Assembly: GCF_963664915.1 (NCBI RefSeq) | Contig: NZ_OY761810.1 | Span: 2,370,661-2,434,660 of the forward strand | Source: an uncultured Caproiciproducens sp. | GTDB taxonomy: Bacteria > Bacillota > Clostridia > Oscillospirales > Acutalibacteraceae | Direction of reading: 5' to 3' | DNA: 64,000 bases | In this document: positions 8,529 through 17,065 of the stretch, one piece after another | How the letters are laid out: each line of letters starts with the position of its first letter | Position numbering within the stretch: position 1 is the stretch's first letter | Program-made: the position numbers and the translations under genes | Notes under the pieces: generated by a model | The model's database searches: none | Seen by the model: the letters and a program-made list of their open reading frames with translations, nothing else | Told to the model about the DNA's origin: nothing

Positions 8529-9137
8529 TTATTTTTTTATTGAGTTAATTCTTGAAATCAGCGTTTCTTTATCAATTGCACCCAGATAGGCGTTTACAAT
8601 GTTACCGTCTGAATCAAGAAACGGTATAATGTTTCCATTTGAATCAATGAAGAGTGTGGTAGGAATGGATGAGATTCCGTAGACCTCTGCAGCTTGCTGC
8701 TTGTTATCGAAATTATCGAAATATACCGGGAAATCATACCCTTGCTCTTCGACATGCTTTTTCCCGTTTTCCTGAGTTTCGCGTTGACCATCGACCAAGT
8801 CTACCATCATAAATACAACGTCATTTTTTTCGTCTGTATATACTTCGTTAAAATGCGGCAATTCCGCTTTGCACGGCGGACACCATGATGCCCAGAAGTT
8901 TAGTACAACAGGCTTTCCCTTAAAATCGGATAATTTGACCTTGTTTCCCTTTGCATCAAAAACCGTAAAATCCGGCGCCGGAGTTTTTTTGCTCTCTTGT
9001 AAAGAAGTATTGCTTACACTCTGTGCTGCTTGATTCGGCTTATAATTGTTTGATAAAGCATCATATGCAAAATAAGCAATGCCCAGAAATACTGCAAATA
9101 GAATAATGCCTAAAATTGTTTTTCTCTTTGTATTCAT
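8529..9137 (-). CDS. TlpA/ResA-type membrane-anchored thioredoxin
   Basis: 202 residues. An N-terminal membrane anchor (about 7-27), a Ser/Gln-rich linker, then a thioredoxin fold with active site NFWASWCPPCKAELP near residue 85. SSIPTTLFID near 160 provides the cis-Pro loop. The extracytoplasmic domain would reduce protein disulphides or cytochrome apoproteins using electrons passed by the CcdA protein encoded 11 nt upstream. A C-terminal DSNGNI/DSDGNI duplication is visible (FIDSNGNIIPFLDSDGNIV). Second gene of a three-gene minus-strand operon. Confidence 0.9.
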   Translation of the reverse strand: MNTKRKTILGIILFAVFLGIAYFAYDALSNNYKPNQAAQSVSNTSLQESKKTPAPDFTVFDAKGNKVKLSDFKGKPVVLNFWASWCPPCKAELPHFNEVYTDEKNDVVFMMVDLVDGQRETQENGKKHVEEQGYDFPVYFDNFDNKQQAAEVYGISSIPTTLFIDSNGNIIPFLDSDGNIVNAYLGAIDKETLISRINSIKK

Positions 9138-9148
9138 AAGTTATCCTC

Positions 9149-9823
9149 CTAAAAAGTGAGCAGGGATAGAAAATATCCCATCAGCCCTGTTGCCATCAAA
9201 AGACCTACTACAACAAGCAGTCCACCCGAAATCAAATTGATTACGCGATAGTTTCTCTTGATAAAATCAAACGTGGATTTTAACCGATCAATTAAAACAG
9301 CGCTTGCAATAAAAGGAATGCCAAGTCCAAGTGAAAAGAAAAAAAGCATTACAATTCCCTTCATGCTTTCGCCGCTTGAGGCGGCAAGCATTAAAGCAGA
9401 GCCTAAAAACGCGCCCACACAAGGAGTCCAACCAATTGAAAATATCACACCGAATAATACAGAGGATAAAAAGCCTGCATTCATCGTTTTCATTTTTAAC
9501 TGCCGATTCGTGTTGAGAAACGGAACCCGTATAATCTCCATGAAATTCAGTCCGAAAAGGATAACAATAATGCCAGACACAATATTTACAGCTGCACTGT
9601 ATTCCCTTAAAAAGCTGCCAACCCCTCCCGCAAACGCTCCCAGCGTGACGAACACAAGGGTGAAACCCACGACAAAGCCTATGGAATTTGTGACAGCTGT
9701 TGTTTTCTTTTTGCCCACATTGTTTTGCCCTGCAAAATATGAAATATAGATGGGCAGCATCGGCAGCAGACAGGGAGAAATGAAGGTGATGATTCCTTCC
9801 AAAAATGAAATGAGATAATCCAT
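9149..9823 (-). CDS. ccdA: CcdA-family thiol-disulphide transporter
   Basis: 224 residues with about six transmembrane helices. The two redox cysteines lie in characteristic contexts: FISPCLLPMLPIYISY in the first helix and GWTPCVGAFLGSA in the fourth. CcdA moves reducing equivalents from cytoplasmic thioredoxin across the membrane to exported partners, here most likely the TlpA-type protein and DUF6132 protein of the same operon. No cytochrome c biogenesis genes are nearby, so general extracytoplasmic thiol reduction is the better guess. First gene of the operon. Confidence 0.92.
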   Translation of the reverse strand: MDYLISFLEGIITFISPCLLPMLPIYISYFAGQNNVGKKKTTAVTNSIGFVVGFTLVFVTLGAFAGGVGSFLREYSAAVNIVSGIIVILFGLNFMEIIRVPFLNTNRQLKMKTMNAGFLSSVLFGVIFSIGWTPCVGAFLGSALMLAASSGESMKGIVMLFFFSLGLGIPFIASAVLIDRLKSTFDFIKRNYRVINLISGGLLVVVGLLMATGLMGYFLSLLTF

Positions 9824-9935
9824 GCCGTCACCCTTTCTCTGATCGTATTATTTCATCACGCTACAAGATTCAATCACTAGCGTCCGGCTGCTTGCCATTC
9901 GTTAGTAATATTACGGATTTACATAGTATGAGTTT

Positions 9936-9977
9936 ATTATAGCAATTCAATATATCTTAATCTGTGATTAAATCACA
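9936..9977 (-). promoter_or_regulatory. ccdA operon promoter with Crp/Fnr-like palindrome
   Basis: Minus-strand -10 TATAAT (complement of 9936-9941) with a poor -35. A 15-bp palindrome TGTGA-TTAAA-TCACA (9963-9977) is centred at 9970, about 41 nt upstream of the expected start point near 9929. That is the class II activator position. The half-sites match Crp/Fnr-type operators, although the spacer is 5 rather than the usual 6 nt. Confidence 0.5.
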
Positions 9978-10035
9978 TAGACGCTTCGGCGTGAAAAATA
10001 ATAGTTATAAAAATAATTGTTTTTAAATTTAGTTA

Positions 10036-10078
10036 TTGTCTTATGCCCATAACTGAGTTATTATAGTTATGGGCATTT
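10036..10078 (+). promoter_or_regulatory. promoter plus paired operator, DUF89-DUF134 operon
   Basis: -35 TTGTCT (10036-10041), 17-nt spacer, -10 TATTAT (10059-10064). A perfect palindrome TTATGCCCATAA (10041-10052) fills the spacer. A second copy TTATGGGCATTT (10067-10078) covers the start point. The two also form one larger inverted repeat. The same arrangement recurs at 11588-11633. Occlusion of the promoter by a repressor is the natural reading. Confidence 0.7.
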
Positions 10079-10149
10079 ATACTCCATAGGCTTGTATATG
10101 CCAATAATTCCGGATTAAGTGGCTCTCAGTTAGATATCCGAAAAAATAA

Positions 10150-10177
10150 ACAGATTACATCCACCGGTGTAATCTGT
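10150..10177 (+). other. leader hairpin before the DUF89 gene
   Basis: A 10-bp inverted repeat ACAGATTACA / TGTAATCTGT with an 8-nt loop, ending 5 nt before the ribosome binding site AGAGGGGA. No T tract follows, so it is more likely a 5' leader structure than a terminator. Confidence 0.4.
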
Positions 10178-10194
10178 ATAAAAGAGGGGATTCC

Positions 10195-11076
10195 ATGGAA
10201 ATATTTCTTGATTGCTTACCCTGCATGCTTCGCCAGACGCTTGAAGCATCTCGAATGGCGACGGACCAGCTTCATTTACAGGAAAAGATAATGGAAGATT
10301 CCATTAAGATTCTTTCACATCATAAGGAGTATAAATGCTCGCCCGATTTGTGTAAAGCGATGCATCAAGCGGTAAAAAAGCACGCTTGCGTTGAAGATCC
10401 TTATGCACAGATCAAAAACAGGGATATCGGTACGGCAAAAAGGGCTTATCCCATGCTTGAACGCTTTTTGAAAAAGAAGCAAAACAGTCTATACTGGGCG
10501 CTGAAAATAGCGGCCACAGGAAATATTATTGATTCTGCAATCAATAATAACGTAAATATGGAAGACTGTATCGAAAAAGAACTGGAAGCAGAGTTTTCTA
10601 TATGCGACCTTGAATCCTTTGAAGACAAGCTGAAAACAGCTAAAAAGCTTCTGATCATTGGCGATAATGCCGGTGAAACCGTGTTTGACCGGGTGTTAAT
10701 GGGGCGCCTTTCCCAGTTTGATATTACATACGCAGTTAGAAGCGGACCGATCATCAATGATGCAACGATCGAAGACGCGTATGCTTCAGGATTGGCTGAT
10801 TTCGCAAAAATTGTATCTACAGGATGCAATGCGCCGGGGACCATTCTTGACGAGTGCAGCACGGAATTTTTAATTATATTCAACAGCGCAGATATTATAA
10901 TCAGCAAGGGACAGGGTAATTTTGAAGCTCTTTCGGATAATGGGAGACAAATATTTTTTCTTCTGAAAGCGAAATGCCCTGTGATATCCCAAAAGCTGGG
11001 TGTTGATTTAAACCAATATGTTTTTAAGTATAATGGAAGTATGATAGATCAAACAAGAGAAATGGAGTTGATATAA
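10195..11076 (+). CDS. DUF89/ARMT1-like metal-dependent phosphatase
   Basis: 293 residues of the DUF89 (damage-control phosphatase) family, archaeal/bacterial short subfamily. Seen: N-terminal DCLPCMLRQ with a CxxC pair, central GDNAGETVFDRVLM (metal and phosphate site), GQGNFEAL near 240, and KCPVIS near the C-terminus. Family members hydrolyse phosphorylated metabolites or damaged cofactors using Co/Ni/Mn. Such genes repeatedly sit near NifX/Mrp clusters in anaerobes. ATG at 10195 follows AGAGGGGA. First gene of a two-gene operon with the DUF134 regulator (1-nt gap). Confidence 0.85.
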   Translation: MEIFLDCLPCMLRQTLEASRMATDQLHLQEKIMEDSIKILSHHKEYKCSPDLCKAMHQAVKKHACVEDPYAQIKNRDIGTAKRAYPMLERFLKKKQNSLYWALKIAATGNIIDSAINNNVNMEDCIEKELEAEFSICDLESFEDKLKTAKKLLIIGDNAGETVFDRVLMGRLSQFDITYAVRSGPIINDATIEDAYASGLADFAKIVSTGCNAPGTILDECSTEFLIIFNSADIIISKGQGNFEALSDNGRQIFFLLKAKCPVISQKLGVDLNQYVFKYNGSMIDQTREMELI

Positions 11077-11077
11077 T

Positions 11078-11554
11078 TTGGCAAGACCGACTAAATGGAG
11101 AAAAATTGAGAATATTCCTACGATTCCCTACTTTATCCCATCGGAAACGGATGTTGCAGAGGTGCCTGAAAACGTGTTGAAGCTGGAAGAACTGGAAGCG
11201 ATACGTCTTAAGGATTTAGTGGGTCTGGAGCAGGGAGAATGCGCCGAAAAAATGGAGGTGTCCCGTCCGACTTTTCAGCGTATCCTTTTAAGCGCAAGAG
11301 AAAAAATTGCAGATAGTCTCATAAACGGAAAAACAATTCACATAGAAGGTGGTAATTTTACACGCAATATTTGTCCGGTAAAATGTCTTGACTGCGGTAA
11401 GGAATGGATGGAAAGTTATGAGAATCTTGAGTCCATAAAAAACGGAGAGTATTCGTGTCCCTCTTGTGGTTCCATGAAAGTTACCTGCGGGCAGAACTGC
11501 AAAGGCAAGTTTTGCCGAAGAAATTGCTGGCGGTATGGCGGGAATGAAGAATAG
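11078..11554 (+). CDS. DUF134 (UPF0251) putative DNA-binding regulator
   Basis: 158 residues. It begins MARPTKWRKIENIP, the diagnostic DUF134 start. A sigma-70 region-4-like helix-turn-helix follows (LEELEAIRLKDLVGLEQGECAEKMEVSRPTFQRIL, about 38-72), with an extended Cys-rich tail: CPVKCLDCGKEW, CPSCGSMKVTCGQNCKGKFCRRNCW. The tail has ten cysteines, suggesting zinc or Fe-S sensing. TTG start at 11078, 1 nt after the DUF89 stop. It is the only DNA-binding protein in the cluster and so the best candidate for binding the paired operators at 10041 and 11593, including its own promoter. Confidence 0.85.
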   Translation: MARPTKWRKIENIPTIPYFIPSETDVAEVPENVLKLEELEAIRLKDLVGLEQGECAEKMEVSRPTFQRILLSAREKIADSLINGKTIHIEGGNFTRNICPVKCLDCGKEWMESYENLESIKNGEYSCPSCGSMKVTCGQNCKGKFCRRNCWRYGGNEE

Positions 11555-11587
11555 ACAACCTGTTTTTATTTATTTTAAACAGTAATA

Positions 11588-11633
11588 TTGACATATGCTC
11601 ATAACTGTACTAAAATATAAATTATGAGCATAA
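11588..11633 (+). promoter_or_regulatory. promoter plus paired operator, flavin reductase-mrp operon
   Basis: TTGACA (11588-11593), 17-nt spacer, TAAAAT (11611-11616). The spacer contains ATATGCTCATAA (11593-11604), and a perfect TTATGAGCATAA lies at 11622-11633. Architecture matches the promoter at 10036, with the first palindrome starting at the end of the -35 in both. Confidence 0.75.
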
Positions 11634-11679
11634 GACCATAATTGCCTTGACACAGAAACAATAAAAGGAGTGTTATGAA

Positions 11680-12171
11680 ATGGAAAAAAGCACAGCGAAT
11701 ATGAAATCCTGTCTACAGCCTATGCCTAAGGTGCTAGTCTCCTGCCGGGGATTAAATGGTGAAAATAATGTACTTGCAGTAGGTTATTGCGGTAATTGCA
11801 GTTATGATCCGCCAATGGTCATGGTTGGTATTGTCCCGACAAGATATTCCTATCAAATGATTAAAGAATCAGGATGCTTTGTAGTGAACCTTGTGGATAA
11901 AAATTATCAAAAAACTTTTGATTATCTGGGAAGCCACAGCAAACGGGATGAAGATAAGCTTGCAGTGATGAATGTCGCGCTGAAGAAAGGCGAAAAAGTA
12001 AACGCTCCCATCCTGCCGGACTGCCCTGTGAATATTGAATGTAAAGTGGTCGATTCCATTGTTATGGGTTCACATGAGATGTTTATCGGAAAGATTGAAT
12101 ATGTTCATGCCGATGCAAAATTAGTTGACCATGAGGGGAACATCGATTTTTCTCAAATTAACTTTCTTTGA
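11680..12171 (+). CDS. flavin reductase family protein (FMN split barrel)
   Basis: 163 residues of the flavin-reductase-like FMN-binding split-barrel family. Recognisable are PMPKVLVSCRG, the PPMVMVGIVPTRYSYQMIKESGCFVVNL core, and a SHEMFIGKIEYVHAD strand near the C-terminus. Members bind FMN and reduce flavins or iron proteins, or act as flavoredoxin-like carriers. ATG at 11680 after AAAGGAG. It opens the second operon of the ORP-like cluster and is followed after 78 nt by the mrp gene. Likely supplies low-potential electrons to the cluster (inference). Confidence 0.85.
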   Translation: MEKSTANMKSCLQPMPKVLVSCRGLNGENNVLAVGYCGNCSYDPPMVMVGIVPTRYSYQMIKESGCFVVNLVDKNYQKTFDYLGSHSKRDEDKLAVMNVALKKGEKVNAPILPDCPVNIECKVVDSIVMGSHEMFIGKIEYVHADAKLVDHEGNIDFSQINFL

Positions 12172-12249
12172 TAGTCAATGGCTTACGAAATGTTCTTTTG
12201 CGGAGTAGTATAAATTGATTATATACAATAAAATTTGGAGTTGAAAAAT

Positions 12250-13113
12250 ATGCCTGATAATCAGAAAGCCTGTTCAGACAGCGGATGCAGCGAAGAATGC
12301 TGTGACGGCTGTGAAAAAAATCCGGAAAGCTTTTTGGAGAAAACGCATGAGTTTAATTCAATCTAAAAAGTGATCGGGGTCGTTAGCGGTAAGGGCGGTG
12401 TTGGAAAATCCTTGGTTACCGCTATGCTTTCTATTCTGATGAACAGAAAAGGATATAACGTAGGAATTTTGGATGCTGACATCACGGGCCCTTCCATCCC
12501 AAAAATGTTTGGTATCACCAGAAAAGCGCAGTCGAATGAAATGGGCATTTTTCCGGAGCGCACACATAATGACATTCGGGTCATGTCCATTAATTTGCTG
12601 TTAGAAAATGCGGAAGAGCCGGTTATCTGGAGGGGACCATTGCTTGCAGGCGTTGTCAAACAGTTTTGGACTGATGTATTATGGGGCGACTTGGATTTTA
12701 TGTTTATCGATATGCCGCCGGGAACAGGTGACGTACCGCTTACGGTATTTCAATCCATTCCGCTGGATGGGATTGTGATCGTGACATCACCCCAAGAGCT
12801 TGTTTCCATGATTGTAAAAAAGGCGTATAACATGGCAAAACAGATGAACATTCCTGTTTTGGGAATTGTGGAAAATATGAGCTATGTTAAATGCCCGGAC
12901 TGTGGAAAAGAGATTAAAATATTTGGAGAAAGCAAATTGTCTGAAACGGCGCAAAATTTAGGCTTAGACGTCTTAGGCCGCCTGCCGATTGACCCGGTTA
13001 TGGCACAGCTTGTTGACAAAGGTGAATTTGAACGGTTCAGCAACGACTATTTAGTTGATGCCGCGCAAAAGCTTGAAACGATGTGTGCGAAAACGGAGGG
13101 GTCATTTGAGTAA
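12250..13113 (+). pseudogene. mrp: Mrp/NBP35-type ATPase, interrupted by in-frame TAA
   Basis: The frame from ATG 12250 (after GGAG) encodes a Cys-rich head with five cysteines (CSDSGCSEECCDGC) and SFLEKTHEF, as in clostridial Mrp proteins. It hits TAA at codon 39 (12364-12366). It continues in the same frame with KVIGVVSGKGGVGKS, the deviant Walker A. The rest is intact: DADITGPSIPKMFG, DMPPGTGDVP, VENMSYVKCPDCGK (CxxC) and a normal end at 13113. Without the stop it would be a 287-residue Fe-S cluster carrier ATPase. GTG at 12370, 3 nt after the stop, could allow reinitiation of a 247-residue ATPase lacking the Cys-rich head; it has no ribosome binding site. A sequencing error is possible. 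Confidence 0.75.
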
Positions 13114-13573
13114 CCATTCACAGCGGGCAATGGAACTGTTTAAGCAGGGGTATAACTGCTCATAGTCAGTCGTCGCCGCTTTTTGCGAAGAATTGGATAT
13201 CAATTTTGAAACCGCCTTAAAAATATCATCTTCTTTCGGCGGCGGTATGGGAAGACTCCGCGAAGTTTGCGGGGCAGTCAGCGGCATGTTTATGGTAGCG
13301 GGATTGAAATATGGATACAGCGACCCGAAGGACAACAAAGCAAAGACGGAACATTATAAACTAATACAGGAACTCGCGGCCCAATTCAAAGCAGAAAACA
13401 GATCGATTGTATCCAGAGAATTGTTGGGTTTAAGTGCCGGTCCAGACAGTCCTATTCCGGAACTAAGGACAACAGAATACTATAAAAAACGTCCTTGTGC
13501 CGAATTGGTAGGATGTGCGGCTGAGATCATGGAAAAAATAATAGAAAATAAAAGTAATATGGAGGAATGTAAA
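13106..13573 (+). pseudogene. C_GCAxxG_C_C family protein, amber at codon 20, no own stop
   Basis: TTG at 13106 follows GGAGGGG and overlaps the mrp stop. The frame reads SQRAMELFKQGYNCS and then TAG at 13163-13165, where relatives have Gln (NCxQ), consistent with CAG to TAG. Beyond it the family signature is complete: SSFGGGMGRLREVCGAVSGM and the distal Cys pair in RPCAELVGCAAEIME. The frame then runs without a stop into the NifX gene. The family is a probable redox or metal-binding helical protein. No credible restart exists after the TAG apart from a TTG at 13193 without a ribosome binding site. Confidence 0.7.
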
Positions 13574-13948
13574 ATGAAGCTGATGATTCCCGTGGAAACC
13601 CAGTCATTAAGCGCGCCTGTCTGCCCATCCTTTGGGCGCACCCCCCTGTTTGTATTGTTCGATACGGAAAGCGGCGAACATGAATTTTCTACCAATCCCG
13701 CCGCCGAAAGCGAGGGTGGTGCGGGCATTAAGGCGGCACAGTTCATTGTGGACAGCGGAACTGAAACTTTGATTACTTACCGCTGCGGGGAAAATGCTGC
13801 ACAGGTACTGAATGCTGCCGGAATTAAAATGTATAAAGCACAGGACGGTTCTGCGGAAGACAATATTGCAAAGTTCAAAAGCGGGGCATTGTCGCCGCTG
13901 ACCGAAATTCATGCGGGATTTCATAACCACGGAGGGGTACAAAAATGA
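13574..13948 (+). CDS. NifX/NifB-type (dinitrogenase Fe-Mo cofactor) protein
   Basis: 124 residues of the NifX-associated family. It starts MKLMIPVETQSL and carries CPSFGRTPLFVLFDTESGEHEF, then GGAGIKAAQFIVDSG and ENAAQVLNAAGIKMY, the typical RNase-H-like cofactor-binding fold. ATG at 13574 has an ideal GGAGGA at 7 nt (13561-13566), so it can be translated independently even though it is in frame with the preceding broken gene. In ORP-type systems such proteins bind Mo-Cu or Fe-Mo-type clusters. The stop overlaps the next ATPase start (ATGA). Confidence 0.85.
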   Translation: MKLMIPVETQSLSAPVCPSFGRTPLFVLFDTESGEHEFSTNPAAESEGGAGIKAAQFIVDSGTETLITYRCGENAAQVLNAAGIKMYKAQDGSAEDNIAKFKSGALSPLTEIHAGFHNHGGVQK

Positions 13949-14781
13949 GGGTAGCCGTACTCAGCGGGAAAGGCGGGACTGGAAAAACCTTTGTTTCCGT
14001 AAATCTTGCCTGCGCCGCTGAAAGGGCCGTTTATGTAGATTGCGATGTGGAGGAGCCAAACGGATATTTGTTTTTGAAGCCTGTGATTAGCAATCGAACT
14101 CCCGTCACGGTTACGATACCTGGATTAATAGCAAATCAGTGCTTGGGCTGCAAGCGATGCGTAAATTTCTGTAAATACAACGCACTTGCTTATGTTCTTA
14201 ATCAACTGATAGTTTTTCCAGAGGTGTGCCATTCCTGCGGCGGCTGTATCCTTTTGTGCCCTGCAAAGGCGTTGGTTAAAAGCGAAAGAAAAATCGGCGA
14301 AATTGAAGAAGGACAGTCCGGCAGTGTATCAACTTTAACCGGCTGCCTTAACACAGGAGAAGAATCCGGCGTGCCGATTATAAAAGGTTTGATACAGAGG
14401 CTGCCCGACGCGGATACCACGATTATTGATTGTCCGCCCGGCAGCGCCTGTATTGTAATGGAGAGTATCCGTAAAGCTGACTTTTGCCTGTTGGTTGCTG
14501 AACCGACATTATTTGGTGTTCATAATCTGGCGATGGCTTATGATCTTGTGAAACTGTTCAAAAAGCCGTTTGGCGTGGTACTCAACAAATGTCTGCCCGA
14601 AGAAAATCCGGCCGAACAGTTCTGTACAGATAATCAAATTCATGTCCTTGCAAAAATTTCTTTTGATGAGGAACTGGGCAGCCTCAATTCAAAAGGACTG
14701 ATCGCAGTACGGGAAGACAGGCGGTATCAGGTGCTTTTTAAAAAACTGCTGGAAGGTATCACAAAGGAGGCCGCATCGTGA
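13945..14781 (+). CDS. MinD/Mrp-type ATPase with inserted 2x[4Fe-4S] ferredoxin domain (1)
   Basis: 278 residues. Deviant Walker A LSGKGGTGKT at the N-terminus, DCDVEEPNG, then an inserted bacterial ferredoxin domain with two Cys quartets (CLGCKRCVNFC and CHSCGGCILLCP, about residues 65-110). The MinD core resumes with IDCPPGSACIVME and VAEPTLFGVHNL. Homologues are encoded as adjacent pairs in ORP operons. Likely couples ATP hydrolysis and electron transfer to metal-cluster assembly on the NifX-type proteins. Overlaps its upstream and downstream neighbours by 4 nt each, so tightly coupled. Confidence 0.9.
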   Translation: MRVAVLSGKGGTGKTFVSVNLACAAERAVYVDCDVEEPNGYLFLKPVISNRTPVTVTIPGLIANQCLGCKRCVNFCKYNALAYVLNQLIVFPEVCHSCGGCILLCPAKALVKSERKIGEIEEGQSGSVSTLTGCLNTGEESGVPIIKGLIQRLPDADTTIIDCPPGSACIVMESIRKADFCLLVAEPTLFGVHNLAMAYDLVKLFKKPFGVVLNKCLPEENPAEQFCTDNQIHVLAKISFDEELGSLNSKGLIAVREDRRYQVLFKKLLEGITKEAAS

Positions 14782-15632
14782 AACAGCTTCTGATTCTCAG
14801 CGGCAAAGGTGGAACAGGGAAAACCACAATTGCCGGCGCGCTTGTCAAGCTGAGTGAATGCCATGCTTTTGCAGACTGTGATGTAGACGCTCCCAATCTT
14901 CATTTGGTGCTTACACAAAACTCTGCCCCGATGAAAAAAGAGTATTATGGATTGGGAAAAGCGGTAATCGACCAATCAAAATGCTTGAATTGTGGATTCT
15001 GCGAACAAAACTGTCACTTTGGAGCAATAAAAAACGCCAGCGTGGATGTCTTTGAATGTGAAGGCTGCGGAGTTTGCGTTGAACTGTGTCCGGTTCACGC
15101 CATTCAACTTTCCAACTATGTGTCCGGAAACTTAACGCTCTACAAATCGGAAGAAACCGTTTTCTCAACCGCCCAACTGAAAATGGGAAGCGGTGCTTCA
15201 GGCAAATTGGTTACGGCAGTGAAACGGCAGCTTTTGCAGGAAGCTCCGCATGAGGATTTGGCCATCATTGACGGTTCCCCCGGAATCGGATGCCCGGTCA
15301 TCGCTTCAATCAGTGGTGTGGATATGGTTCTCATTGTGGCAGAACCAACCATATCGGGCATGCATGATATGAAAAGGATCCTTGAAACAACACAACATTT
15401 TGGTGTAAACTGTGCTGTTTGCATCAACAAGTTCGATGTGAACATAGGCAATACCAAAGACATTGAAAACTATTGCAGTGGACTTGATATTCCTGTGATT
15501 GGGAAAATACCGTTTGATGATACGGTCGTGAAAGCGGTAAATCAGAGCCAAAGTATTGCCTGCTATCCCGATAGTCCTGCTGGGAAAGCAGTGGTTTCCA
15601 TTTGGAACGATTTAAAATCATATATCAGATAA
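14778..15632 (+). CDS. MinD/Mrp-type ATPase with inserted 2x[4Fe-4S] ferredoxin domain (2)
   Basis: 284-residue paralogue of the preceding gene. ILSGKGGTGKTT, DCDVDAPNLHL, ferredoxin insert CLNCGFCEQNC and CEGCGVCVELCP (about 70-110), IDGSPGIGCPVIAS, VAEPTISGMHDMKR. Unlike its neighbour it retains DGSPGIGCP, typical of the Orp4-like type, so the pair probably forms a heterodimer with distinct subunits. GTG start at 14778 overlaps the upstream stop. Last gene of the tightly overlapped block; the second NifX gene follows after 77 nt. Confidence 0.9.
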   Translation: MKQLLILSGKGGTGKTTIAGALVKLSECHAFADCDVDAPNLHLVLTQNSAPMKKEYYGLGKAVIDQSKCLNCGFCEQNCHFGAIKNASVDVFECEGCGVCVELCPVHAIQLSNYVSGNLTLYKSEETVFSTAQLKMGSGASGKLVTAVKRQLLQEAPHEDLAIIDGSPGIGCPVIASISGVDMVLIVAEPTISGMHDMKRILETTQHFGVNCAVCINKFDVNIGNTKDIENYCSGLDIPVIGKIPFDDTVVKAVNQSQSIACYPDSPAGKAVVSIWNDLKSYIR

Positions 15633-15709
15633 TTCAAGTATTGTTCCAGATGTTCATTCTATATTAAGTCAATTTTAAAATTATTAAATTTAAAAGGAGA
15701 AAATGAATT

Positions 15710-16066
15710 ATGAAAATCGCAGTTGCAAGTGAAGGTAAAATGGTAACGGAACATTTCGGTCATTGTGAGGGATTTGCTATATTTGAGACAGAAAACAAGC
15801 GGATTACAAGCAGTGAATTCATTCCTAATCCCGGACATAAGCCGGGCTTTTTACCGAATTTTCTGAATGACAAGGGCGTAAAGGTCATTATTTCCGGTGG
15901 CATGGGTGGCGGTGCTGTTGATATTTTCAATGAAAAAGGGATTGAAGTGGTCACCGGAGCCTCCGGCGATGCCGAGACGGCTGTTAACAGCTATTTACAG
16001 GGAACACTGAAATCAACAGGCTCTGTTTGCCATGAGCACCAGCATGCTGATGAGTGCGGAGAATAA
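15710..16066 (+). CDS. NifX/NifB-type cofactor-binding protein (2)
   Basis: 118 residues. MKIAVASEGKMVTEHFGHCEGFAIF is the standard opening of the stand-alone dinitrogenase iron-molybdenum cofactor family, followed by ISGGMGGGAVDIFNEKGIEVVTG and a His-rich, metal-binding C-terminus (CHEHQHADECGE). The tail has three His and two Cys, which the first NifX protein lacks. ATG at 15710 after AAAAGGAG. It may be expressed at a higher level than the upstream block. Confidence 0.9.
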   Translation: MKIAVASEGKMVTEHFGHCEGFAIFETENKRITSSEFIPNPGHKPGFLPNFLNDKGVKVIISGGMGGGAVDIFNEKGIEVVTGASGDAETAVNSYLQGTLKSTGSVCHEHQHADECGE

Positions 16067-16186
16067 AACCATATATCTTAATATAGGGATACAGAGGCAA
16101 CAGCTTCTTCCGTTTGTGGAGGTCGTACCGGTAGGAGTGCTTGAACTCATTACAAAGCAAAACTACTGAAAAGCGTAGGAAATACA

Positions 16187-16225
16187 GTGTAGCCGGTAAG
16201 GTGTTATTGACCTTACCGGCTACAC
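16187..16225. terminator. perfect 16-bp hairpin between convergent genes
   Basis: Arms 16187-16202 and 16210-16225 (GTGTAGCCGGTAAGGT and its complement) with a 7-nt loop. It has no T tract in either direction but separates the ORP-like cluster from the minus-strand sod operon. Likely a bidirectional transcription stop or mRNA 3' end. Confidence 0.55.
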
Positions 16226-16243
16226 TATTCATGCACTGCTGCT

Positions 16244-16441
16244 TTATTGCTTTTCATTGCCGTTTTTTTTATTATCGGGACTGCATGACGCATTTACGGC
16301 GGCCAATAAGGATAGTTGATCACCAATCGTTGTGAACAGAGCGCCTAATACAACCAAGTCTTCATCGTTTGTGTATTGAGAGATCTGTATTGCGATGGCA
16401 GCGGAAAGTGCCGTGAGTTTTTCACCGAAACAGTTGTTCAT
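16244..16441 (-). CDS. DUF6774-like small protein (65 aa)
   Basis: 65 residues: MNNCFGEKLTALSAAIAIQISQ, then NDEDLVVLGALFTTIGDQLSLLAAV and a polar tail (SPDNKKNGNEKQ). Two amphipathic helices and the DEDLxxLxALFTxxGDxL pattern match the small clostridial DUF6774 family, of unknown function. It starts 6 nt after the superoxide dismutase stop, with AAGGCTG as ribosome binding site inside the end of sod, so the two genes are co-transcribed. Confidence 0.65.
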   Translation of the reverse strand: MNNCFGEKLTALSAAIAIQISQYTNDEDLVVLGALFTTIGDQLSLLAAVNASCSPDNKKNGNEKQ

Positions 16442-16447
16442 ATTATT

Positions 16448-17065
16448 TCAGCCTTTTTGAAAATTGTTTTCTACTTTGGCCCAATCAATTACATTAAACC
16501 AGTTTTCAGCATAGTCGGCTCTAAGGTTTTTATACTTTAAATAATATGAATGTTCCCAAACATCGATTAATAGGATCGGCGCCAGACAGGTTTTCAAAAG
16601 GGTGTCCTGATTTGCGGTAGAAAGGATTTTTAACTCCCCGCATTGATTTGCGGCCAACCAAGCATATCCCGAGCCAAAACGATTGACTGCGGCCTGCTTT
16701 AACTGTGCTTTAAAATTACCGAAGGTTCCAAAAGTTTTTTCAATTGCATTCTGCATTTGCGTGTACGGCTCGTTGTTCGTGTTCCCCATAATATCAAAAT
16801 AGAAATTATGATTGTAAACACCGCCGGCGTTATTGATTACTTCGGTTTGAATGCATTCGGGAAGCCGGCTTGCGTGTATAATGAGCTGCTCAAGAGTCAT
16901 TTGCTGGAATTGAGGATATGGCTTCAGGGCTGCATTCAAATGATCAACATAAGCTTTCAGATGTTTGTCATGGTGGAGTTCGACTGTTTGTGCGTCAATA
17001 TACGGTTCAAGCGCATTGTATTCATAAGGAAGAGGCAGCAGTTTAAACGGATAATGGTTGTTCAT
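16448..17065 (-). CDS. sodA: Fe/Mn superoxide dismutase
   Basis: 205 residues. The four metal ligands can be placed: H31 (in ELHHDKH), H86 (YNHNFYF), D168 and H172 (LIDVWEHSYY). GSGYAWL and the second-shell Tyr in the N-terminal helix are also present. It dismutates superoxide in the cytoplasm. Metal preference (Fe, Mn or cambialistic) cannot be decided reliably by eye. In an anaerobe this indicates exposure to traces of oxygen. It has its own consensus promoter and is followed by the DUF6774 gene. Confidence 0.92.
   Translation of the reverse strand: MNNHYPFKLLPLPYEYNALEPYIDAQTVELHHDKHLKAYVDHLNAALKPYPQFQQMTLEQLIIHASRLPECIQTEVINNAGGVYNHNFYFDIMGNTNNEPYTQMQNAIEKTFGTFGNFKAQLKQAAVNRFGSGYAWLAANQCGELKILSTANQDTLLKTCLAPILLIDVWEHSYYLKYKNLRADYAENWFNVIDWAKVENNFQKG

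What the first reader, a model, noticed from the sequence alone, without database searches (positions are those of the whole stretch)
10036..11633. Two promoters share a paired TTATG-NN-CATAA operator in the same position
Seen: four palindromes, TTATGCCCATAA, TTATGGGCATTT, ATATGCTCATAA and TTATGAGCATAA, two per promoter. In both promoters the first begins at the end of the -35 and fills the 17-nt spacer, and the second overlies the start point. They flank the operon that encodes the DUF134 protein, the only DNA-binding candidate. I infer DUF134 binds this motif, repressing its own operon and the flavin reductase-mrp operon. A specific site and regulon for DUF134 is, as far as I know, poorly described.
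Basis: partly seen in the sequence, partly recalled or inferred. Interest (0 to 1): 0.78.

Follow-up and report, generated by a model that had tools for sequence, protein, structure and literature searches.

The report
DUF134 repressor with paired promoter operators
An uncharacterised bacterial protein family, DUF134, very probably acts as a gene switch that sits on paired DNA sites built into the promoters of its own operon and of metal-cluster (Fe-S / 'orange protein') operons, and one amino acid of it appears to set which DNA letters it reads.

Summary
The window's genome (3.13 Mb, same genus as Caproiciproducens faecalis) has two paired TATGNNCATA places, both flanking its only DUF134 gene. 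In 11 genus genomes all 6 paired places lie within about 2.3 kb of a DUF134 gene. Across Bacillota, DUF134 promoters carry TTGACATATG at the -35, often with a second arm over the start point: GACATATG is in 76 of 173 upstream regions against 1.45 expected. NifX-type loci carry TTGACATATG in DUF134 genomes (16 of 30) but not in selected DUF134-free ones (0 of 30). The third base after CATATG tracks residue 68 of the DUF134 recognition helix: Arg gives C (17 of 21), others A/G/T (48 of 49); no other column predicts it as well. So DUF134 almost certainly reads this site. Promoter geometry implies repression of its own operon and of ORP/MrpORP metal-cluster operons. The signal is unknown; Cys-rich tails and NifX fusions hint at metal or redox. 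Ten paper searches showed no description of the site. Binding and repression are untested.

The parts
10036..10041 (+). -35-like TTGTCT of promoter 1 (DUF89-DUF134 operon)
   Evidence: sequence
10041..10052 (+). operator arm 1a, TTATGCCCATAA
   Evidence: one of the two paired places of this genome
10059..10064 (+). -10-like TATTAT, 17-nt spacer
   Evidence: sequence
10067..10078 (+). operator arm 1b, TTATGGGCATTT, over the expected start point
   Evidence: arms 10043-10054 and 10065-10076 are 100% inverted repeats
10195..11076 (+). ARMT1-like/DUF89 damage-control phosphatase gene, first gene of the DUF134 operon
   Evidence: PF01937 E=1.3e-59
11078..11554 (+). DUF134 gene (158 aa): HTH with recognition helix SRPTFQRIL (R68) and Cys-rich C-terminus; proposed repressor
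   Evidence: PF02001 78.9 bits (cut-off 27); the only DUF134 match of the genome
11588..11593 (+). -35 TTGACA of promoter 2
   Evidence: sequence
11593..11604 (+). operator arm 2a, ATATGCTCATAA
   Evidence: TTGACATATGCTCATAA is the only 0-mismatch match of TTGACATATGNYCATAA in the genome
11611..11616 (+). -10 TAAAAT, 17-nt spacer
   Evidence: sequence
11622..11633 (+). operator arm 2b, TTATGAGCATAA, over the expected start point
11680..12171 (+). flavin reductase-like gene, first gene behind promoter 2
   Evidence: PF01613 E=1.8e-30
12370..13113 (+). Mrp/MrpORP-type Fe-S carrier ATPase gene; an in-frame TAA (12364-12366) lies between it and an ATG at 12250
   Evidence: PF10609 E=2.8e-91; NF041136 348.7 bits, cut-off 450; frame, relatives
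13193..13948 (+). C_GCAxxG_C_C protein with Nitro_FeMo-Co domain; in-frame TAG at 13163-13165 just upstream of this ORF
   Evidence: PF09719, PF02579
13945..14781 (+). MinD-type ATPase with ferredoxin motifs (Orp3/Orp4-like, by description only)
   Evidence: PF01656 and Fer4 hits; ORP description seen in passages of PMC6345978
14778..15632 (+). second MinD-type ATPase with ferredoxin motifs
15710..16066 (+). NifX/ORP-like Nitro_FeMo-Co protein
   Evidence: PF02579 E=2.5e-23; matches MrpORP model positions 265-365

Best explanation
The four elements are two paired operators of the DUF134 protein encoded between them. DUF134 is a small HTH protein whose fold resembles sigma region 4. It binds arms with a CATATG-type core that are built into the promoter, one starting on the -35 hexamer and running into the spacer, the other over the start point, and so blocks RNA polymerase. 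It represses its own operon (DUF89-DUF134) and the flavin reductase / Mrp / C_GCAxxG-NifX / MinD-ferredoxin / NifX operon, a clostridial version of the orange-protein/MrpORP metal-cluster system. Position 68 of the recognition helix sets the base three places outside CATATG (Arg: C; others: mostly A/G). Repression is probably relieved by a metal-cluster or redox signal sensed by the Cys-rich tail or, in 27 of 253 homologues, by a fused NifX-type domain. Shown here: sites, geometry, association with DUF134, co-variation. Inferred: binding, repression, operon extents, signal.
For: Pairs only at the DUF134 locus in the genome, and 6 of 6 pair places in 11 genus genomes within about 2.3 kb of DUF134. 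GACATATG in 76 of 173 DUF134 upstream regions vs 1.45 expected. A promoter-embedded site at 90 of 173 scorable DUF134 genes vs 1.8 in simulated upstream DNA. In 80 named loci TTGACA is followed by TATG 124 times vs a mean of 3.35 for the other 4-mers seen; 69 of 80 loci. TTGACATATGNYCA in 102 of 193 genomes with DUF134 vs 13 of 106 without, Fisher 1e-12. NifX loci: TTGACATATG in 16 of 30 from DUF134 genomes vs 0 of 30 from selected DUF134-free ones, TTGACA alone 26 vs 28. Helix-68/base co-variation: strict 17:4 vs 1:48, p=1.3e-11; loose 73:14 vs 4:63; position 68 is the best single predictor (MI 0.51 vs 0.19 next). Paralogues of one genome follow the rule, e.g. G276, L227. The DeoR residue that aligns with R68 is R39, reported to contact bases. 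Second CATATG behind 103 of 236 sites vs 81 of 1108 control TTGACA.
Against: No binding or expression data. The co-variation test on a tree is underpowered: 8 helix changes, 21 operator changes, only 3 independent pairs on supported branches (2.8 the same way, 0 opposite), p 0.25. Strict exceptions are L245, L181, L188, L222 (Arg without C) and L099 (Ser with C). 83 of 173 DUF134 genes lack a promoter-linked site under my score, at least partly because DUF134 is inside operons. Six genomes scored DUF134-negative (G438, G501, G529, G539, G645, G681; drafts 90-94% complete) have good-looking sites at ORP-type genes. Of seven strict pair places in the phylum, three (G546, G525, G407) have no DUF134 in the 3-kb loci around them. 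In DUF134-free NifX loci GACATATG still occurs in 1 of 30. The window's arms are weaker than the family consensus (promoter 1 has TTGTCT and CTTATG).
Confidence: 0.86

Rival explanations
1. DUF134 binds the sites but as an activator, or a dual regulator, rather than a repressor.
For: The fold is sigma region 4-like, and a protein beside the -35 could contact polymerase; the window's promoter 1 has a poor -35 (TTGTCT).
Against: The DUF134 promoters found have -35 and -10 hexamers close to consensus at 16-18 nt (the score asks for this, but simulated DNA reaches it in only 1.8 of 173), which should need no activator; arms inside the spacer and over the start point are the usual place of repressor sites (general knowledge).
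Confidence: 0.1
2. Another regulator of the same neighbourhood binds the motif and DUF134 is a co-regulated passenger.
For: Six DUF134-negative draft genomes keep good sites at ORP genes (one of them, G645, has a weak 27-bit DUF134 match beside the site); a Cro/C1 HTH gene is 2 kb from promoter 1 and DtxR-type genes lie behind some sites in relatives.
Against: The base at the third place outside CATATG tracks DUF134 helix residue 68 better than any other DUF134 column, also between paralogues of one genome; a passenger would not do that.
Confidence: 0.06
3. The inverted repeats work as RNA: a hairpin or attenuator in the leader.
For: The arms are near-perfect inverted repeats 10-17 nt apart.
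Against: With the -10 between the arms only the second arm would be transcribed; no Rfam match over gathering score in 9000-17000; in several relatives (e.g. L016, L023, L037) the arms are direct copies of a self-symmetric core.
Confidence: 0.02
4. TTGACATATG is simply an extended promoter element for a sigma factor, not an operator.
For: The first arm overlaps the -35 by construction of my scan.
Against: A second arm lies 30-41 nt away, outside the -35; the element is absent from 30 selected NifX loci of DUF134-free genomes although TTGACA is equally common there.
Confidence: 0.02

Closest known systems
orp operons of Desulfovibrio vulgaris Hildenborough (ORP complex and MrpORP)
   Same: Same gene set in outline: ferredoxin-type MinD ATPases, Nitro_FeMo-Co (orange) protein, Mrp with or beside a Di-Nase domain (PMC6345978 passages).
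   Different: [quoted passage not shown] here sigma-A-type promoters carry DUF134 operators. The window's Mrp and NifX are separate proteins.
DeoR of Bacillus subtilis (SorC/DeoR family), DNA-binding domain 7bhy / 8r7y
   Same: Best sequence match of the DUF134 profile among solved structures, E=9.4e-5 over 38 residues. SRPTVSRLL aligns with SRPTFQRIL; the two Arg are 5 apart at chain positions 39 and 44, which fit R34 and R39 of the paper, so DeoR R39 aligns with DUF134 R68 and R34 with R63. In DeoR-OL18 (3.7 A) R39 is said to contact bases T14 and G4 and R34 a T (PMC11229326 passages).
   Different: DUF134 has no sugar-binding effector domain and another operator; DeoR's OL18 is ATTGAACAAAATTTCAAT (PMC11229326 passage).
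Sigma factor region 4 (-35 binding domain)

Membership tests
DUF134 (PF02001, UPF0251) | score over Pfam's curated cut-off | tested here: met
   78.9 bits vs 27
DUF134 (PF02001, UPF0251) | match to NCBIfam equivalog NF003257 over its cut-off | tested here: not met
   59.2 vs 115 bits; this equivalog is a narrower model than the Pfam family
DUF134 operator class of this report | arm on the -35 and a second, inverted or repeated arm over the start point | tested here: met
   the CATATG core is exact only in arm 2a of the window
DUF134 operator class of this report | binding by purified DUF134 | not testable with these tools
   needs EMSA or footprinting
MrpORP (NF041136) | P-loop NTPase fused to a Di-Nase domain, score over cut-off 450 | tested here: not met
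   window Mrp covers model positions 8-247 with 348.7 bits; the Di-Nase part is a separate gene (positions 265-365, 117.7 bits)
SorC/DeoR family | HTH of the DeoR type | tested here: inconclusive
   E=9.4e-5 to 7bhy over 38 residues
SorC/DeoR family | C-terminal sugar-binding effector domain | tested here: not met
   158-aa protein; Pfam reports only DUF134 and a sub-threshold DUF7836
Sigma-70 family, region 4 | sequence score over the sigma70-ECF cut-off | tested here: not met
   19.9 vs 42.9 bits
Sigma-70 family, region 4 | region-4 fold | tested here: inconclusive
   [not shown]

The most novel reading that the evidence does not exclude
DUF134 is a widespread family of repressors of anaerobes derived from sigma region 4. 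Its non-Arg operator TGRCATATGYCA is two inverted -35-like TGAC half-sites, so the repressor competes with sigma for its own hexamer; a single switch at helix position 68 re-codes the site, and fused NifX or Cys-rich domains make it the metallocluster sensor that controls the ORP/MrpORP system.
Probability: 0.35. Interest if true: 0.82.

Novelty: new variant of a known kind. Interest (0 to 1): 0.7.

Why it matters
A family still called 'unknown function' gets a DNA site, a specificity residue, a promoter logic and a regulon, all directly testable. It also offers a regulator for the clostridial ORP/MrpORP Fe-S system, whose described control (sigma-54) is from Desulfovibrio, and a NifX-fused sensor candidate.

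Tried and rejected
RNA hairpin: rejected, the -10 lies between the arms and Rfam has no match. Wider regulon in the own genome: TTGACATATGNYCATAA with up to 3 mismatches gives 55 matches vs 45 for the reversed control, so beyond the two operons there is no clear excess; one further candidate (1330924, before an ORF that looks transketolase-like by eye) has no partner arm that convinces by eye. Strict Arg-type pair over the phylum was too narrow: 6 of 299 genomes, 7 places. Of these G000 (2) and G484 have DUF134 in the locus or beside it, G412 has one about 2.5 kb away, and L321, L322, L323 (G546, G525, G407) have none in their 3 kb. Tree-based independent pairs too few to be significant. The 38-sequence alignment A1 was not conserved enough for the search for related loci; a 7-sequence subset was used. 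Absence of a family from the fold lists is not used as evidence.

Papers (10 searches; open-access library, most subscription journals missing): DUF134 as word start, 22 papers listed, but this also catches DUF1340-1349 (the passage of PMC10434189 is DUF1349; that of PMC6155114 shows DUF1343); DUF134 as whole word, 2 papers, listing only; UPF0251, 1 paper, passage read: a mutation table; COG1342, 1, listing only; DUF134 with dinitrogenase iron-molybdenum cofactor, 0; TTGACATATG, 16, listing only, titles unrelated; MrpORP, 6, listing; orange protein operons, 10, listing; two DeoR searches. Nothing seen describes a DUF134 site; I did not read any paper whole.

Weak points of the statistics: the 193/106 split against one search was made by reading the two tables by hand; the expectations are first-order Markov simulations (20 and 10 rounds); related loci are not independent observations; one search used 253 unique genes, of which 70 (strict) or 154 (loose) had an exact TTGACATATG, so DUF134s without it (e.g. 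the GAGCATATGCAC type of L002, L009, L012, L017, L020, L022) were not counted. The 60 DUF134-negative genomes were chosen leaving out those that had matched TTGACATATGNYCA, so 0 of 30 is favourably selected; the 30 loci on each side are the ones the tool returned (30 of 47 listed places, 30 of 54), several per genome. The 13 motif-bearing genomes without DUF134 over the cut-off were looked at separately: 6 have sites at ORP-type genes, 7 do not.

Full report
OBSERVATION. The window is G000:C1:2370661-2434660 of a 3,125,711-base single-contig genome. The genus group includes G001, whose contig 2 has the same length (891,603) as Caproiciproducens faecalis NZ_JAGFNZ010000002.1. Single loose matches are common, so the pair is the informative unit: TATGNNCATA-N4..26-TATGNNCAT occurs at two places in the whole genome, both here. 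In the 11 genomes of the genus there are 6 distinct places in 4 genomes, and all 6 are within about 2.3 kb of a DUF134 gene (G000 twice, G004, G008 twice, G010; positions). The reversed-pattern control gives 3 matches in those 11 genomes.

RELATIVES. DUF134 (PF02001) was searched in 11 genus, 200 family, 197 order and 299 phylum genomes: over the cut-off in 9, 49, 56 and 193 (the sets overlap). Reading the promoters of 38 DUF134 loci showed the same design in many of them: TTGACATATG at the -35, a -10 at 16-18 nt and often a second arm over the start. With 173 upstream regions the most enriched words are TATGTCAA (74 regions vs 1.3 expected) and GACATATG (76 vs 1.45), far above the ribosome-binding word AAAGGAGG (18 vs 1.8). 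A -35/CATATG/-10 promoter under a lenient score is found at 90 of 173 scorable DUF134 genes against 1.8 on average (at most 4) in simulated upstream DNA; under a tight score 79 against 0. In 80 named loci brought by the window-type DUF134, TTGACA is followed by TATG 124 times against a mean of 3.35 for the other 4-mers seen, in 69 of 80 loci.

TWO SITE TYPES AND A SPECIFICITY RESIDUE. Letters after TTGACATATG fall into two main classes: Y-C-R-N-A-A-A and C/T-Y-C-A-T/A-A-A. The class follows the seventh residue of the recognition helix (R68 in the window protein, SRPTFQ[R]IL). Strict set (site within 300 nt upstream, 70 genes): Arg 17 C and 4 other; non-Arg 1 C and 48 other, Fisher 1.3e-11. Loose set (nearest site within 3 kb, 154 genes): 73/14 vs 4/63. 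Among all protein columns position 68 is the best single predictor (mutual information 0.511 against 0.186 for the next in the strict set, 0.498 against 0.302 in the loose set), which argues against mere shared ancestry. The formal tree test is weak: 8 helix changes and 21 operator changes, but only 3 independent pairs on supported branches, 2.8 concordant on average, none opposite, p 0.25. Paralogues of one genome agree with the rule: in G276, ARTTVQAVYG has CATATGCCGG and ARTTVQRIYN has CATATGCCCATAA; in L227 an SRTTVQGIYI gene has CATATGCCGATAA and TGACATATGTCA upstream, while about 0.8 kb upstream of the neighbouring SRPTFQRILL gene stand CATATGCTCATAA and TTATGGGCATATG. The solved relative DeoR has SRPTVSRLL; its R39, which by the spacing of its two Arg aligns with R68, is reported to contact bases, at 3.7 A (passages of PMC11229326). 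That a glutamine of sigma-A region 4 at this place also contacts a base is recalled, not tested.

ARM STRUCTURE. The second arm is free of the -35 constraint. For non-Arg proteins (52 sites) it reads about RTWWNYGRCATATGYCRNWAAY, a dyad centred on CAT|ATG; for Arg proteins (36 sites) about RTWATGRGCATATGYYMATAAY. In 66 of 103 pairs the core centres are 34, 38 or 39 nt apart; a second exact CATATG follows 103 of 236 distinct TTGACATATG sites against 81 of 1108 other TTGACA.

CO-OCCURRENCE AND CONTROLS. TTGACATATGNYCA is present in 115 of 299 phylum genomes: 102 of the 193 with DUF134 over the cut-off and 13 of the other 106 (tables compared by hand; Fisher 1e-12). Of those 13, six (G438, G501, G529, G539, G645, G681; 90-94% complete drafts) have sites before ORP-type genes, so either DUF134 is missing from the draft or another protein can use the site; in the other seven no gene like my query set lies near the sites (17 regions read). 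NifX-type (PF02579) loci: TTGACATATG in 0 of 30 from DUF134-free genomes and 16 of 30 from DUF134 genomes, 9 of 20 where the locus itself has no DUF134; GACATATG 1 vs 17 of 30; TTGACA alone 28 vs 26 of 30. The 60 DUF134-free genomes had been picked without those that matched, which favours the contrast.

REGULON. Of 124 sites in the 80 loci, 60 could be assigned to a gene like one of the window's: C_GCAxxG/NifX 15, DUF134 14, NifX 13, Mrp 6, flavin reductase 6, MinD-ferredoxin 3, DUF89 3. For the other 64 an automatic ORF was found behind 60; representatives match DUF5320, metallo-beta-lactamase fold, iron-dependent repressor (DtxR type), NifU_N, DUF1847, radical SAM/SPASM, ZnuA, DUF364 and CGGC families. 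Mrp, ferredoxin-type MinD ATPases and a Nitro_FeMo-Co protein are parts of the Desulfovibrio ORP system, which there is under sigma-54 control (passages of PMC6345978). In the window's own genome only the two operons are clear members.

MECHANISM. Most likely a repressor: sites lie in the spacer and over the start of promoters with good sigma-A hexamers. Shown: sites, uniqueness, association, co-variation. Inferred: binding, repression, operon extents, signal. Literature: ten searches of the open-access library showed no DUF134 site or regulon.

Noticed in passing
window 12364-12366 and 13163-13165: In-frame stop codons in two neighbouring genes (Mrp and C_GCAxxG protein) at places where relatives read on with sense codons; the ORP-type operon may be decaying in this strain, or these are sequence errors.
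   Followed up: partly
window 10150-10177: Perfect inverted repeat ACAGATTACA-N8-TGTAATCTGT between promoter 1 and the DUF89 start; among 395 loci then held it occurs in 7, which are overlapping loci of the own genome.
   Followed up: partly
L002, L009, L012, L017, L020, L022: A third operator type, ATGAGCATATGCAC...GTGCATATGCTCAT or close to it, at DUF134s with SRATFQR/SRGTVQR-like helices; not counted in the co-variation test.
   Followed up: no
L013, L014, L016, L019, L021, L036 and others: DUF134 fused to a Nitro_FeMo-Co (NifX-type) domain, 27 of 253 unique proteins: a natural sensor-repressor fusion.
   Followed up: partly
L018, L038: DUF134 genes with GACATATGYTCATAA promoters directly before a gene that looks like an FAD/NAD disulfide reductase (read by eye), suggesting a redox target.
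   Followed up: no
G407:C1:1306769 and G525:C17:35709 (L323, L322): A similar paired TATGRTCATAA...TTATGAGCAT element in two genomes of one genus, with no DUF134 in the 3 kb around it; its genes were not examined.
   Followed up: no
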